From the NCBI GenBank assembly GCA_002791595.1, contig PFXJ01000024.1:1-33329 (forward strand): a stretch of 33,329 nt of DNA, given 5' to 3'. This DNA comes from a candidate division Zixibacteria bacterium CG_4_9_14_3_um_filter_46_8 (GTDB taxonomy: Bacteria > Zixibacteria > MSB-5A5 > UM-FILTER-46-8). Shown in pieces: positions 10,018-16,735 of this stretch. Positions within the stretch are counted from its first letter, which is position 1. Each line of letters opens with the position of its first letter. The translations under genes were made by a program, and so were the position numbers. A model generated the notes under the pieces. It ran no database searches. It was not told the DNA's origin and saw only the letters and a list, made by a program, of their open reading frames with translations.

Positions 10018-10355
10018 GGATTAAATTTATTATGGCAAAGTAAACCAGATTCAGAAATGGACAAGGCGAAATGGAGATATCCAACACCTTCATTTATAAG
10101 GAAAATCCGCTTGACTTATTCACCGACTTTATTATAATCTATTCATTGATTGTATGGACGGTGCAGAGAAGGCTGAAGGTGACAGAATATAGAAGCGTGG
10201 TACAAAGACACAGCAACTTCATTTACAGAAAGACGGACCATGTTCGCCGTCTTATATAGACCGCAAAACCATTATTGTACCTTAAAATCAGCAATTTATA
10301 GGCATCTAATCGGCAGTTAAAAACCGCATACTGATAAGGTCAGGATATAGCAAAC
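10018..10355 (+). promoter_or_regulatory. Non-coding stretch ahead of the Dcm restriction island
   Basis: This 338-base AT-rich gap holds one clear promoter (10111-10138) and then about 210 bases of leader before the truncated methyltransferase. A 62-codon frame at 10071-10259 crosses the promoter and has poor initiation signals, so I do not call it. No repeat or attachment site was recognised. Confidence 0.4.
10111..10138 (+). promoter_or_regulatory. Sigma-70-type promoter for the Dcm island
   Basis: TTGACT (10111-10116) and a perfect TATAAT (10133-10138) are 16 bases apart on the plus strand. It points into the truncated dcm gene and would produce a leader of about 210 bases. Confidence 0.6.
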
Positions 10356-10718
10356 ATGCTAAATAATAAAGGCAAAAACGGCAAAGTAATTCGATACATT
10401 GACTTGTTCTGCGGCATTGGCGGATTTCGCGTTGCGATCGAGCAATTATCTTCTGAATTAGGTATTGCTGGACAGTGCGTTTTTTCGAGCGACATCGACG
10501 AGGACTGTCAACAAGCTTATGAGGCAAACTTCGACGAAAAGCCAGCGGGCGACATCACGGCCGTTAGAGCGGGGGATATACCCGACCATGACATTCTTCT
10601 TGCTGGTTTCCCATGCCAGCCATTCAGCATTATCGGCCATAGAAAGGGCTTTGAAGACACTCGCGGCACGCTTTTCTTTGAGATCGCTATGCCGGGTTAT
10701 TTCTCTTATGATAACTGA
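10356..10718 (+). pseudogene. dcm: Truncated DNA cytosine-5 methyltransferase (Dcm-type), N-terminal third only
   Basis: Residues 11-111 match the start of a C5-cytosine methyltransferase: motif I IDLFCGIGGFR (S-adenosylmethionine site), motif II acidic FSSDIDEDCQQAY, GDI before motif III, and the catalytic motif IV AGFPCQPFS with its PCQ cysteine, then RGTLFFEIA. Homology stops abruptly at about base 10689, and 9 unrelated residues follow to the stop. Motifs VI-X and the target recognition domain are absent, and I find no continuation in any frame. This is a real deletion or misassembly, not a simple frameshift. The fragment cannot be an active methylase. Its end overlaps the next start as ATGATAACTGA. 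Confidence 0.85.
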
Positions 10719-11703
10719 ATTTAAGGTCGACGAAAAATATACGAATGATCAAATTCGATTCGCTCTTAACGTAGAAAATTTAGGCGGTATCCGTCCTTCC
10801 GTTGATGCAAGTAAAAACCTTAACCACTTGGTAATTTTGACTGCGGCAGAGCAGTATGAAAGAAATATAAGCGAGAATCCCTACCACGACAGAATTGAAA
10901 ACAATGTGCTGATTTATACGGCACAAGGACGGACAGGCGATCAAGAAATCAGTGGTAGAAATAAAAGGATACTCGAACAATATTCCGCGCCAATTCCTTT
11001 TTATGGCTTTTCAAACGAAGGAAGACAAACATATACTTTTCTCGGATTACTTGAGCTTCTACGCCATTTTCAAGAATATCAGATAGACAAGAAGAATGTT
11101 TTGAGAAAGGTTTGGGTTTTTGAATTTTACATTCATAATGAAATACCGACAATTCCGATTCAAAATGCAAAAGATATAATTGCCGCCATATTTAAGGAAT
11201 CAAGAAAAATACATGAAATAGACAGAGAAGAAAGAGAAGTTGTTTTGGTTGAACCTTCGCAAGAAATTGATGAAACTGCCAATTATGAAGTCGAGGAAAT
11301 TCGTTCCCATCTTCTTCAAATTAATCCATATCGTTTTGAGTCCCTTGTAAGAGACATTGTTGAATCAAATGGGTTTATAAACGTAAGCGTGACGCCTCGG
11401 TCGCAAGATGGTGGAATTGATGTAAATGGCTATGTTGCAGATTTCAATTATTTTTTCTCTAAGACGCATGTTCAATTCCAAGTAAAACGTTGGCGGCATT
11501 CTGTGGGCAGCGTTGAGATTAATAATTTCAGAGGGGCATTGCATACGACAGCAAAAGGTGTTTTTGTGACCACAAGTCATTTTACAAAGGCTGCAATTCA
11601 AGAAGCGGAACATTCTGTCAAGCCTTGCATTTCCGTTATCGATGGGTTCAGATTTTCAAAGCTTATTAAAGAGAGCGCGCTAAACATTAACAAATATCTG
11701 TAA
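10708..11703 (+). CDS. Modification-sensing (SRA/PUA-like) plus Mrr-type restriction endonuclease
   Basis: The 331-residue product has two parts. Residues about 15-140 (GGIRPS, NPYHDRIENNVLIYTAQGR, GDQEISGRNKRIL, RKVWVFEF) resemble the SRA/YDG-like domain found beside HNH and Mrr nucleases that read modified DNA. Residues about 205-331 form an Mrr-type PD-(D/E)XK nuclease: PYRFESLVRDIV, D238 in GGIDV, and Q258-V-K260 in VQFQVKRW, followed by the KGVFVTTSHFT strand. All catalytic residues are present. The chosen ATG overlaps the stop of the truncated dcm by 11 bases and has no clear ribosome site, so translation may be coupled, or the N-terminus may have been trimmed by the same deletion. It probably cuts modified DNA (type IV-like) or was the nuclease of a Dcm system. 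Confidence 0.78.
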   Translation: MITEFKVDEKYTNDQIRFALNVENLGGIRPSVDASKNLNHLVILTAAEQYERNISENPYHDRIENNVLIYTAQGRTGDQEISGRNKRILEQYSAPIPFYGFSNEGRQTYTFLGLLELLRHFQEYQIDKKNVLRKVWVFEFYIHNEIPTIPIQNAKDIIAAIFKESRKIHEIDREEREVVLVEPSQEIDETANYEVEEIRSHLLQINPYRFESLVRDIVESNGFINVSVTPRSQDGGIDVNGYVADFNYFFSKTHVQFQVKRWRHSVGSVEINNFRGALHTTAKGVFVTTSHFTKAAIQEAEHSVKPCISVIDGFRFSKLIKESALNINKYL

Positions 11704-11714
11704 AGGCTGAATAT

Positions 11715-12442
11715 ATGATTGAAAATCACATTAACGAGAAATGGGAATGCTATTTATGCGGCGCAGAAGCTGCTCTTGAAATCATCCCCGGAGGATGGCT
11801 TGGCAATTATCATCCTCTCTGTAATTCATGCGCAGACGCTGTCTTCTTTGACACGACATCCAAATTTCATGATGCAATGACTTTTCATCATCTAATTGGG
11901 GATTTTGCATAATTGACGATATAGTCCTCGAACAAACGGCATGGGGCGCAAAGACAGTCAAAAATAGAAGACCATCAACCGCTTCTAAAATACGCCTGAT
12001 ATGTGGCCGGAATTCCCCTGTTTATTCCTTTGGCGACCGCGAAGTTAGCGAAGTTGATCCGAGCGACCTTGGCAAGAAAATTCTTTCCATTTGGAATGAG
12101 CGCGTATCCAGTATCCGCAAACTTTATAAGCACTTAAGGACAGTAGTTCTCATCAAATCTGATAATCTTCTGGAAGTGGCCGTATTTGAATTTGAGACTA
12201 TTCTGTACAGAGGTCAGGATTATTGGTGGCAGTGGAACGAGCGAAATAATTTAGAAGGCTTTGGCAAAGCGAGCAACCAACACATCTTTACATGGCAGCC
12301 TCATGGGTCTCAGTTTACCATTCTAGAGGATGTTGCTAAGGAGAGACTTGCAATAAGAATCAAGCAGCCTCCTATAGTAAACCGTAACGAAATACTTAAG
12401 GCAATCGAGTTTGATGAATCTTGGATAGAAATCATTAAATGA
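11715..12442 (+). pseudogene. Unknown restriction-island protein, apparently split by a one-base deletion
   Basis: The first frame (11715-11912) starts at an ATG with AAGG upstream and encodes 65 residues with a zinc-ribbon pattern, C-x2-C (ECYLCG) and C-x2-C (LCNSCA). It stops at TAA. A second frame is open from 11873 to 12442 with no ATG, GTG or TTG before 12176, so it cannot start on its own. Adding one T to the T4 run at 11903-11906 fuses them into a continuous 242-residue protein. The second part contains KIRLICGRNS, LLEVAVFEFET and a conserved-looking block WWQW/FTWQPHGSQF. I do not recognise the family. Its place between an Mrr nuclease and Vsr suggests a restriction role. Confidence 0.55.
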
Positions 12443-12443
12443 C

Positions 12444-12878
12444 ATGGTGGATACATTTTCAAAGACTGACCGCTCAAGAATCATGGCGCGAGTGAAGTCC
12501 CGAAACTCTAAATCCACTGAGCTTCGATTCATTTCTATACTTAAAGACAAGGGCATTACTGGCTGGGTGCGCAATTACAAGTTGACTGGCAAGCCCGATT
12601 TTGCTTTTTCACGCCTAAAGATAGCGATATTTATTGACGGCTGCTTTTGGCATGGATGTCCCAATCATTGCCGAATGCCATCCTCAAATATGGACTACTG
12701 GAACAACAAAATTGAAAAGAATAAAATTAGGGACAAGAAAATAAAAAAGGCATTAAGAATGAAGGGCTGGCAAGTGATTAGAATCTGGGAGCATGAAATT
12801 AAGTCAGGCAAACTCGGACGCAAGCTGGATTTAATAAAGACGGGTGCACAACAAATCGCCCCACAGGATGCAAAATAA
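12444..12878 (+). CDS. vsr: Very short patch repair endonuclease Vsr
   Basis: The 144-residue product is a full-length Vsr. It shows the N-terminal zinc/DNA-entry region DTFSKTDRSRIMARVKSRN and STELR, the catalytic stretch GKPDFAF followed by IAIFIDGCFWHGCPNHC, the YWNNKIEKNKIRDKK region and GWQVIRIWEHEI. The family nicks 5' of the mismatched T in T:G mispairs left by deamination of 5-methylcytosine, and is normally encoded beside a C5 methyltransferase. Here the partner Dcm is truncated (10356-10718), so Vsr may be an orphan. The start lies 1 base after the previous stop. Confidence 0.93.
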   Translation: MVDTFSKTDRSRIMARVKSRNSKSTELRFISILKDKGITGWVRNYKLTGKPDFAFSRLKIAIFIDGCFWHGCPNHCRMPSSNMDYWNNKIEKNKIRDKKIKKALRMKGWQVIRIWEHEIKSGKLGRKLDLIKTGAQQIAPQDAK

Positions 12879-14722: not shown

Positions 14723-15532
14723 TCACAAATCCTCGATTAAAGCATTAAAACCAGCGGTATTCACCCAAAAGCTACTCGGATGATTTCCCAAATTCCTCTT
14801 AATTTCCTCACGTTGCTTTCTTAATTTTTCACCCCCAATATCGCATCCCAAAAGAACATTTGAATAAGTCCCATCCAAGAATGCTACATACATTATATTC
14901 TCATTTTTCTCCTTAAGGCCAATGATTTCTATAAGTTCAGCAATTTGCTTATCCTGTTCCCCGCCAGAAGTATTTATATGCTTTGCTTCGCATAGCAAAA
15001 GTTTCTTTTCATTCTTGACAATTAGATCCAATTTTTTGTCCCGTTTCTTGGTGGCAATCTCAATACATAACTTTTCTCGTGCGGTCTTTATGCTGAATTC
15101 CTTAGAAAACTTGGCTACGCACTTTTTGCGGTTTTCAAAATCAGACCGTGAACTAACTTGGTTAAATCCTGCGTTTTTCAAAATATCCAGAAGCTTTTTT
15201 TCGCCGGATTGACCCTTTTTGCGAGAAGAACTGGAGTCTAATATTGCCTGTACCCACTCTTCAGGCACTATATCATTTAGCAACCTCTTCTTAAAATATC
15301 TCTGAGTAATCTCCTTCAATAATTGGATGTCTTTCTTGACATAATCTAAAAAGCTATCACAAGCGTTAATAAAACAAGCAAATTCCGAGCAATTTGAAAA
15401 TCTGCTTAAAGCATCTGAAAGCGCTACATAGTATTTATCGATTATCTTTGGATCCTCTTTCTTATCCAGCAACGTCCTTATCGTTATGAGAATGCATTTT
15501 ATTTGCCTAGTATTTTTGATGTATTCAGCCAA
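14723..15532 (-). CDS. Type II restriction endonuclease (PD-(D/E)XK), main frame lacking its first residues
   Basis: This frame encodes 269 residues and would have to begin at a TTG without a ribosome site. The catalytic core is clear: D169 in KKLDLIV, E182 and K184 in LLCEAKH, followed by a Q-rich helix QDKQIAELIEI and the strand MYVAFLDG. This is the PD-(D/E)XK arrangement of type II endonucleases, and the gene follows an N6-adenine methyltransferase on the same strand. The true start is very probably ATG 15624 (separate entry), with one base missing from the T5 run at 15513-15517; the repaired protein is 300 residues. The recognition site cannot be told from the sequence. Confidence 0.72.
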   Translation of the reverse strand: MAEYIKNTRQIKCILITIRTLLDKKEDPKIIDKYYVALSDALSRFSNCSEFACFINACDSFLDYVKKDIQLLKEITQRYFKKRLLNDIVPEEWVQAILDSSSSRKKGQSGEKKLLDILKNAGFNQVSSRSDFENRKKCVAKFSKEFSIKTAREKLCIEIATKKRDKKLDLIVKNEKKLLLCEAKHINTSGGEQDKQIAELIEIIGLKEKNENIMYVAFLDGTYSNVLLGCDIGGEKLRKQREEIKRNLGNHPSSFWVNTAGFNALIEDL

Positions 15533-15624
15533 TTGGGATGTTTTTCGGGGAAAATATAAAAATCATCCAAATACCCTTCAGGAGATCGCAATGATACATC
15601 ATAGTAGTACTGGTTGTTTTTCAT
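15499..15624 (-). other. Out-of-frame N-terminal piece of the type II endonuclease
   Basis: ATG 15624 has GGAGAG (15628-15633) just upstream and opens a 41-codon frame overlapping the methyltransferase end by 26 bases. It reads MKNNQYYYDVSLRSPEGYLD and on to HPNWLNTSK before a premature stop. Adding one A (minus strand) to the A5 run at 15513-15517 fuses residue K37 to NTRQIKCIL of the main endonuclease frame. The coding-like composition and the ribosome site make this the likely native start. Confidence 0.65.
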
Positions 15625-16735
15625 ATCTCTCCGAATAAATATAGTTCAAGAACTTGTAAGCCAGTTCAAAAGACATTCTTTTTCTATTATTGTCTCTAAA
15701 ATTAGTTAGGAAAAATGAAAAGAACCTTTTCCGTTCATCATTTAATCTATTATTAAATTCTATCATTAATTCCTTTTGATTTTCTATCGATATTTCACTC
15801 TTAAAAATGATATGAGCCATATTTCGAGAGGTTTTCTTGCCGACTAGGCCCGCAATTCCATATTTTCTTATATCTTCGAGCTGAATCTTGGGGCCCATTT
15901 TGCTGTCTATAGCCCTTAAGATCAGGATATTCCTTTCAATTAGATCACTGGAATGCGCGCTGATATGGAAGGTCTTTATATCTTTCATATTCTGAATGGC
16001 AAGTTTCATCTCAACTTCGCCTGGGTGCAAAAATTCTTCTGTAAGACGGCGTATCCCAAGATGATTTTTCATATTCTTCACCTTACTTATGAAATCACCC
16101 CCCAATTGCCAATGGGATTTTTTTTCAATAGTAAGAGCAATTTGCCTTTTCTCTGGGAATATGATAGCCTGGAATTCGTTGCTATCGGATTTATCCATCT
16201 TTCTCTCGAAGTAAAATGATATAACATTATTGGTTGTATCATCGAATACTTGCTCAGCAAAAAAGTTTACTAAGGCTATTCTAAATTTATTGAAAAATAG
16301 ATCTCTAATTTTCCCTGAATTTTCTGCACTTAGAAAATTCATAGGGACAATCAAAATGCCTTCTTGGCAATTTAGAATTGAGAATATAGATATTTGATAT
16401 AAATCATCGAAGTTCGAGTGGTAGCCAGAAAAGAACCTTTTTTTGGTATTCTCATCCGCCTTATTTTTATGAAGATAAGGAGGATTCGTGCAAATGAATT
16501 TATATTCGCATGGATCGTTTATGGAATCCCTGTGGCAGACGTTAATATTATCTACATACTTTCGATCGCAATCAAATCCCATAATGCTTTGGCAATTATT
16601 TTTTCGAGCCCAATTGACTAAATCCTGATTTCCGGCGAAAGGATCAATAACTTCCTTATTTTCAACAAATTTTTCCAGACCCTGCAAAATAAGATCTGAA
16701 TTAGTTGTGAAAAATTGGCCAAATTGCTTCTTCAT
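15599..16735 (-). CDS. Type II N6-adenine DNA methyltransferase
   Basis: The 378-residue product has the order motif X (FGQFFTT, 5-11), motif I (DPFAG, 31-35) and catalytic motif IV NPPY (84-87) preceded by ICT, which defines a gamma-class amino-methyltransferase acting on adenine N6. The remaining C-terminal half is probably the target recognition part. It protects host DNA from the endonuclease encoded directly downstream. Its start lies 41 bases after the clpB stop, and a perfect 10-bp palindrome ACAATATTGT (16766-16775) lies between them. AT-rich codon use compared with clpB suggests the pair was acquired. The start has no strong ribosome site. Confidence 0.85.
   Translation of the reverse strand: MKKQFGQFFTTNSDLILQGLEKFVENKEVIDPFAGNQDLVNWARKNNCQSIMGFDCDRKYVDNINVCHRDSINDPCEYKFICTNPPYLHKNKADENTKKRFFSGYHSNFDDLYQISIFSILNCQEGILIVPMNFLSAENSGKIRDLFFNKFRIALVNFFAEQVFDDTTNNVISFYFERKMDKSDSNEFQAIIFPEKRQIALTIEKKSHWQLGGDFISKVKNMKNHLGIRRLTEEFLHPGEVEMKLAIQNMKDIKTFHISAHSSDLIERNILILRAIDSKMGPKIQLEDIRKYGIAGLVGKKTSRNMAHIIFKSEISIENQKELMIEFNNRLNDERKRFFSFFLTNFRDNNRKRMSFELAYKFLNYIYSERYEKQPVLL

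What the first reader, a model, noticed from the sequence alone, without database searches (positions are those of the whole stretch)
15499..15624. Hidden N-terminus of the type II endonuclease, displaced by one base
The apparent gene begins at a TTG without ribosome site, but upstream an ATG with GGAGAG, overlapping the methylase end, opens a protein-like 37-residue stretch that joins the main frame if one base is added to the T5 run at 15513-15517. It could be a disabling mutation (methylase kept, nuclease lost), a sequence error, or a slip-dependent way to hold nuclease levels low.
Basis: seen in the sequence. Interest (0 to 1): 0.5.

Follow-up and report, generated by a model that had tools for sequence, protein, structure and literature searches.

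The report
Restriction enzyme gene broken near start
A DNA-cutting defence gene next to its protective methylase has lost its reading frame after about 30 residues, most likely a recent disabling mutation (or an assembly error) of an ordinary kind.

Summary
The hidden N-terminus is real. Minus-strand frame A (ATG 15624, stop 15499) encodes the first 30 residues of a type II endonuclease whose other 270 residues lie in frame B (15535-14726). The 22 of 29 examined relatives that hold this part read it in one frame. The apparent TTG start at 15532 is a leucine codon, invariant in 16 aligned sequences.

No long repeat lies at the break. A -1 slip motif (15553-15547) is at chance level, with no downstream structure. 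The endonuclease shows no excess decay. Two of 20 close relatives with a complete or nearly complete methylase also have a broken endonuclease.

Best reading: a recent one-base loss that disables the nuclease and leaves the methylase solitary (0.6). A sequence or assembly error remains possible (0.28); slippage is a weak third (0.07). The pair is DpnII/Tsp45I-like and probably gained horizontally. Interest is low.

The parts
15599..16735 (-). DNA adenine-type methyltransferase (Eco57I family, NPPY motif), 378 aa, complete
   Evidence: PF07669 E 1.7e-7, 31.9 bits over the cut-off of 25.3; aligns with the methylases of 15 relatives at 45.8-68.3% identity, from residue 1 or 2 to 378 in 14 and 2-367 in L015
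15535..15624 (-). True N-terminal codons (residues 1-30) of the endonuclease, frame A
   Evidence: profile score 57.8 bits, next best in window -15.9; BLAST hit to L003 residues 2-33
15499..15534 (-). Out-of-frame tail of frame A (11 codons and TAA stop)
   Evidence: from L003 residue 35 on all frame-A scores but one (residue 40) are negative
15532..15540 (-). Place of the frame break (around the codons for L003 residues 32-34)
   Evidence: best join after residue 33, codon 15537-15535
14723..15535 (-). Main endonuclease frame B (270 residues plus stop), D..EAK catalytic pattern kept
   Evidence: PF06300 E 3.1e-7 and PF04556 E 4.1e-6, both over cut-off; aligned with relatives
15547..15553 (-). 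In-phase -1 slip-type heptamer T TTC CCC; probably incidental
   Evidence: background about 1 in 10 stretches of 21 codons, and no heptamer at this codon in the 15 relatives examined

Best explanation
This is a probably horizontally acquired type II restriction-modification pair, methylase first and endonuclease overlapping its end. In the sequenced lineage the endonuclease gene has recently lost one base about 90 nt into the gene. Ribosomes starting at the proper ATG run into an out-of-frame stop 11 codons past the break and make a useless 41-residue peptide. The remaining 270 codons have no proper start. The methylase is intact, so the cell would keep the DNA mark and lose the cutting: methylase kept, nuclease lost. 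Shown: both frames, their match to the family, the place of the break to about a codon, the complete methylase, and nuclease loss in other members of the family. Inferred: that the base is missing in the cells and not only in the assembly, that no active nuclease is made, and that methylation persists.
For: Frame A and frame B each match the same family residue by residue up to the break. The 22 relatives that hold this part are in one frame there (translations). Frame A matches the family at the last four codons before the break (E, K, H, P) while frame B matches only K there, so the break is young. The endonuclease/methylase divergence ratio is 1.08 for the 15 window pairs against 1.21 (sd 0.37) for 105 other pairs, so long decay is not seen. 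Nuclease loss recurs: of 20 other close loci with a complete or nearly complete methylase (residue 2 to at least 367), two have a broken endonuclease, L016 (frame change before residue 96 and an in-frame stop at 145) and L022 (transposase gene with HTH_38 and rve domains inserted). The review PMC12707154 says that many modification enzymes lack a partner restriction function (passages).
Against: No reads were available. Elsewhere in the same assembly two clear frame breaks and one weak one were seen in 153,620 aligned coding bases, so some process (error or real) makes such breaks at about 1 to 2% per gene of this size. PMC3711429 expects singleton frame breaks confirmed by BLASTP to be sequencing errors rather than genuine indels (passages). 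PMC3488263 cites a study in which 109 of 138 disrupted genes proved undisrupted on resequencing (passages). In the family, loss does not always spare the methylase: L018, L019, L020 and L023 have lost parts of both genes.
Confidence: 0.6

Rival explanations
1. The break is a sequencing or assembly error; the real gene is an intact endonuclease of about 300 residues.
For: Only one lesion in about 300 codons and no excess divergence. The catalytic residues are kept. A proper ATG with GGAGAG is kept. Other frame breaks exist in this assembly: 4 rows, 3 places, 2 of them clear, in 153,620 aligned bases, against 1 (not inspected) in 178,092 for the relative G120. Literature prior in PMC3711429 and PMC3488263 (passages).
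Against: The break lies in no long homopolymer. The sampled contigs hold 22 short N runs of varied length, which suggests paired short reads (inference; N may also mark withheld bases); short reads rarely make single-base indels (recalled). The expected rate per gene from the background is only 1 to 2%.
Confidence: 0.28
2. The break is bridged in translation: ribosomes slip by -1 at T TTC CCC (15553-15547) or nearby, giving a little full-length nuclease and so a high methylase to nuclease ratio.
For: An in-phase X XXZ ZZN heptamer of the right direction lies four codons before the change of frame. Both frames are open together from 15562 to 15499. In E. coli C_CC.C is weakly shifty with a stimulator, and U_UU.C_CC.A is listed above 0.10% without one (PMC4066793, passages).
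Against: None of the 22 relatives that hold the part has a frame change there, and none of the 15 examined has a heptamer at this codon. In-phase heptamers occur by chance in about one in ten stretches of this length (N rows left out). The downstream RNA is no more structured than its shuffles (z +0.62). Frame-B residues 30, 32 and 33 do not fit the family, so the bridged reading is not old. U_UU.C_CC.C itself was not found in the text searched.
Confidence: 0.07
3. The gene really starts at TTG 15532 or later and makes a shorter, working nuclease.
For: An open frame of 269 codons with the catalytic core.
Against: No ribosome site is apparent. The TTG is leucine L35, invariant in 16 aligned sequences and nearly invariant with the distant L002 added. 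The 22 relatives that hold this part, down to about 30% identity, keep the N-terminal residues. The model of L003 has a helix at residues 7-16 and a long one from 35.
Confidence: 0.05

Closest known systems
Type II R-M systems with a DpnII/Tsp45I-family endonuclease (PF04556, PF06300)
   Same: Part of the C-terminal half matches both families above their cut-offs; D..EAK catalytic pattern; a methylase gene precedes it
   Different: Only the core region matches these profiles; the best structural match is BstEII at Z 9.4 over 154 residues; recognition site unknown
Solitary (orphan) methylase left by nuclease loss
   Same: Complete methylase beside a broken endonuclease
   Different: One small lesion only, so very young, and not confirmed in reads. 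The H. pylori frame breaks described in PMC3936762 are often in homopolymer repeats (passages); here there is none
Programmed -1 ribosomal frameshift genes
   Same: Right direction, overlapping frames, an in-phase heptamer
   Different: Site not conserved, no stimulator found, motif not among the strong ones

Membership tests
Type II restriction-modification system, DpnII/Tsp45I-like endonuclease | Endonuclease profile match over curated cut-off | tested here: met
   PF06300 30.6 bits (cut-off 25), PF04556 26.8 bits (cut-off 23)
Type II restriction-modification system, DpnII/Tsp45I-like endonuclease | Adjacent methylase with its motifs | tested here: met
   PF07669 31.9 bits (cut-off 25.3), NPPY present
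Type II restriction-modification system, DpnII/Tsp45I-like endonuclease | PD-(D/E)XK-type active site | tested here: met
   D203, E216, K218 (L003 numbering) invariant in 17 aligned sequences, window included; many rows are restriction enzymes or other nucleases (that they share the PD-(D/E)XK fold is recalled)
Type II restriction-modification system, DpnII/Tsp45I-like endonuclease | Endonuclease gene readable as one protein | tested here: not met
   two frames, break at about 15537-15535
Type II restriction-modification system, DpnII/Tsp45I-like endonuclease | Site-specific cleavage and methylation | not testable with these tools
   needs biochemistry
Programmed -1 frameshift gene | Frame change conserved in homologues | tested here: not met
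   0 of 22 relatives with this part have it; 7 of 29 examined lack the part
Programmed -1 frameshift gene | In-phase slippery heptamer | tested here: inconclusive
   T TTC CCC present but at chance frequency
Programmed -1 frameshift gene | Downstream stimulatory structure | tested here: not met
   z +0.62, 143 of 200 shuffles fold at least as well; pseudoknots not tested
Phase-variable R-M gene | Long homopolymer or tandem repeat at the frame change | tested here: not met
Pseudogene with solitary methylase | Lesion present in the organism | not tested
   no reads available

The most novel reading that the evidence does not exclude
The one-base loss is a savior indel: it spares the host from a newly gained nuclease while a trace of -1 slippage at T TTC CCC still makes full-length enzyme, so that a frame break, not a control protein, sets the methylase to nuclease ratio after horizontal transfer.
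Probability: 0.04. Interest if true: 0.55.

Novelty: new member of a known kind. Interest (0 to 1): 0.15.

Why it matters
It corrects the gene model: the nuclease gene starts at 15624, not 15532, and is broken as assembled. It adds one more case where nuclease loss leaves a methylase, in an R-M family found here mainly in Patescibacteria and Altarchaeum records. If the slippage reading were true it would be an unusual way of holding nuclease levels low, but the evidence does not favour it.

Tried and rejected
The join at the T5 run was scored and lost by 26.6 bits. With frame B alone as query, viral contigs and plasmids gave nothing; the phage and E. coli collections were not searched. Solved structures by sequence: nothing significant. 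A programmed frameshift was tested by conservation, background rate, RNA fold and one paper search and not favoured. Long decay of the endonuclease was tested by divergence ratio and by conserved-column counts (5 of 77 columns changed in the window, 0 to 6 in the 15 others) and not seen. Foldseek alone gave no match at E 0.001 or better; no DpnII or Tsp45I structure appeared among the 50 rows, which says nothing either way. Pfam, PHROG and PADLOC searches of the two inserted ORFs of L018 gave only weak matches or none, and so did Pfam for the larger ORF of L023. Two samples of 379 genomes each around G133 and G134 (apparently the same group, since the listed genomes are the same) held few members: 4 with the methylase and 4 with the endonuclease, centres included. 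Paper searches; I saw listings, and passages only of PMC3936762, PMC3488263, PMC4066793, PMC3711429, PMC5009743 and PMC12707154.

Rows dropped before counts: L002 and the broken or partial relatives were left out. In one search at least 382 heptamers holding N are in the printed total of 1,195 and I subtract them. In one search two rows of L117 are one place and weak. That screen asks for 35% identity on both pieces while its aligned-base count asks for 40% and E below 1e-10, so the rate is rough; the window's own break (G120's enzyme is about 30% identical) is not among its rows.

Full report
What is there. On the minus strand lie a methylase gene (16735-15599, 378 aa, Eco57I family) and, overlapping its end, an endonuclease gene. 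The listed endonuclease ORF starts at TTG 15532. Upstream, ATG 15624 follows GGAGAG with two bases between, overlaps the methylase by 26 nt and opens a 41-codon frame that stops at 15499. The relatives have the same layout: with the ATG positions used, the stretch from the endonuclease ATG to the end of the methylase stop codon is 35 nt in 12 of 15, and 29, 38 and 50 nt in the other three.

Relatives. A scan of genome contigs with frame B found 23 loci, mostly Patescibacteria by their titles and two Altarchaeum records. The genome search added L002, L154, L155, L156 and L160, and L161 was taken as a stretch of G139. I examined 29 loci plus the window with the intact 306-residue enzyme of L003. 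The part around the break is present in 22 loci, and all 22 are in one frame across L003 residues 20-50. The script labelled L016 and L156 as broken only because their hits contain a stop further on, at residues 96 and 301. Seven loci lack this part in the DNA held (L018, L019, L020, L023, L024, L025, L155). L024 belongs to the genome of L161, which has it. L002 and L160 are only about 30% identical and still have the N-terminal residues.

Place of the break. With a profile of 15 relatives, frame-A residues 1-30 score 57.8 bits against -15.9 for the next best of 66,474 30-mers of the window. Frame A fits through L003 residue 33 (codon 15537-15535) and frame B fits from residue 34 (codon from 15535), with no residue missing between. 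The window is thus one base short relative to its relatives at about 15532-15540. The TTG at 15532 is leucine 35, invariant in 16 aligned sequences. The full protein would have 300 residues (30 + 270), close to the 303-306 of the 15 relatives.

Kind of enzyme. The core matches the Tsp45I and DpnII families. D203, E216 and K218 are invariant in 17 sequences. AlphaFold2 of the L003 enzyme reached pLDDT 81.6. VIA-align 2 ranked BstEII first with Z 9.4, rmsd 3.6 over 154 residues, against 7.6 for the next row; the tool warns that Z under 8 may mean only a common arrangement. The pair has 35% G+C in a window of 46%. In its own phylum only 2 of 132 genomes hold a match to frame B, one of them its own and the other at 32% identity, while relatives at up to 64% stand in Patescibacteria and Altarchaeum records. 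Horizontal gain is the natural reading (inference).

Real lesion. Both frames still fit the family right up to the break, and frame B does not fit at residues 30, 32 and 33. The divergence ratio shows no decay. Nuclease loss recurs. Of 20 other close loci with a complete or nearly complete methylase (L003-L015, L017, L021, L016, L022, L154, L156 and G139), two have a broken endonuclease, L016 and L022; 17 are whole in one frame; and in G139 the enzyme is open but split over two contigs. L016 has a frame change before residue 96 and an in-frame stop at 145, and its ATG is out of frame with the rest. In L022 a transposase gene (HTH_38 and rve domains) is inserted. Against a simple rule of methylase kept: L018, L019, L020 and L023 have lost parts of both genes.

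Error. I compared 659,358 bases of this assembly with 1,119,788 bases of the relative G120. In 153,620 aligned bases 4 rows (3 places, 2 of them clear on inspection) showed a change of frame, against 1 row (not inspected) in 178,092 the other way. This gives about 1 to 2% per gene of 0.9 kb, error and real lesions together. The sample has 22 short N runs of 8 to 182 bases, as short-read scaffolding would give (inference; N may also mark withheld bases). The literature warns that singleton frame breaks are often errors (PMC3711429, PMC3488263; passages). I therefore leave 0.28 for an error.

Slippage. An in-phase T TTC CCC lies at 15553-15547, four codons before the break. In-phase heptamers in long ORFs of this assembly number about 813 in 162,632 codons after N rows are left out, so about one in ten stretches of 21 codons has one by chance. 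Of 15 relatives none has one at this codon; seven have none in the first 47 or so codons, and eight have others elsewhere, three of these (L008, L014, L021) at codons 30-34 of an unbroken gene. The downstream RNA is not structured. U_UU.C_CC.A appears among motifs above 0.10% in E. coli, while U_UU.C_CC.C was not found in the text searched (PMC4066793). Compensated savior indels are a known idea (PMC5009743, passages). I give slippage 0.07.

Verdict. An ordinary type II R-M pair with a correctly spotted but wrongly joined N-terminus; most likely a recently disabled nuclease beside an intact methylase.

Noticed in passing
window 10338-12878: What looks like a second, decayed cytosine R-M patch: only the first third of a C5 methylase (PF00145 positions 2-95 of 324, 10392-10688), then an Mrr-type nuclease gene (to 11700), small ORFs, and a Vsr gene (12444-12878).
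   Followed up: partly
L018 2086-2990, L020 2091-2990, L023 2090-2990: Three relatives share a two-ORF insert (about 211-217 and 72 aa) between a truncated methylase and the endonuclease from residue 107-108; the left edges differ. By eye the inserted ORFs are nearly identical; DNA identity of L018 to L023 is 86.8% over insert plus endonuclease and 69.4% over the methylase part. Only weak family matches or none.
   Followed up: partly
L019 1035-2207: A different replacement at the same kind of place: methylase residues 2-93, several small ORFs, endonuclease from residue 75.
   Followed up: no
L022 3274-4290: Transposase gene with HTH_38 and rve domains inserted inside the endonuclease; methylase complete.
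   Followed up: partly
L016 2880-3815: Altarchaeum endonuclease with several lesions beside a nearly complete methylase (residues 1-373).
   Followed up: partly
L155 1501-3316: A related methylase (57% identity) is followed by a different endonuclease that shares only the core (34-36% over 56-59 residues), possibly a partner swap.
   Followed up: no
L027 near 10480 and L028 near 3258: Two other clear frame breaks in conserved genes of the same assembly.
   Followed up: partly
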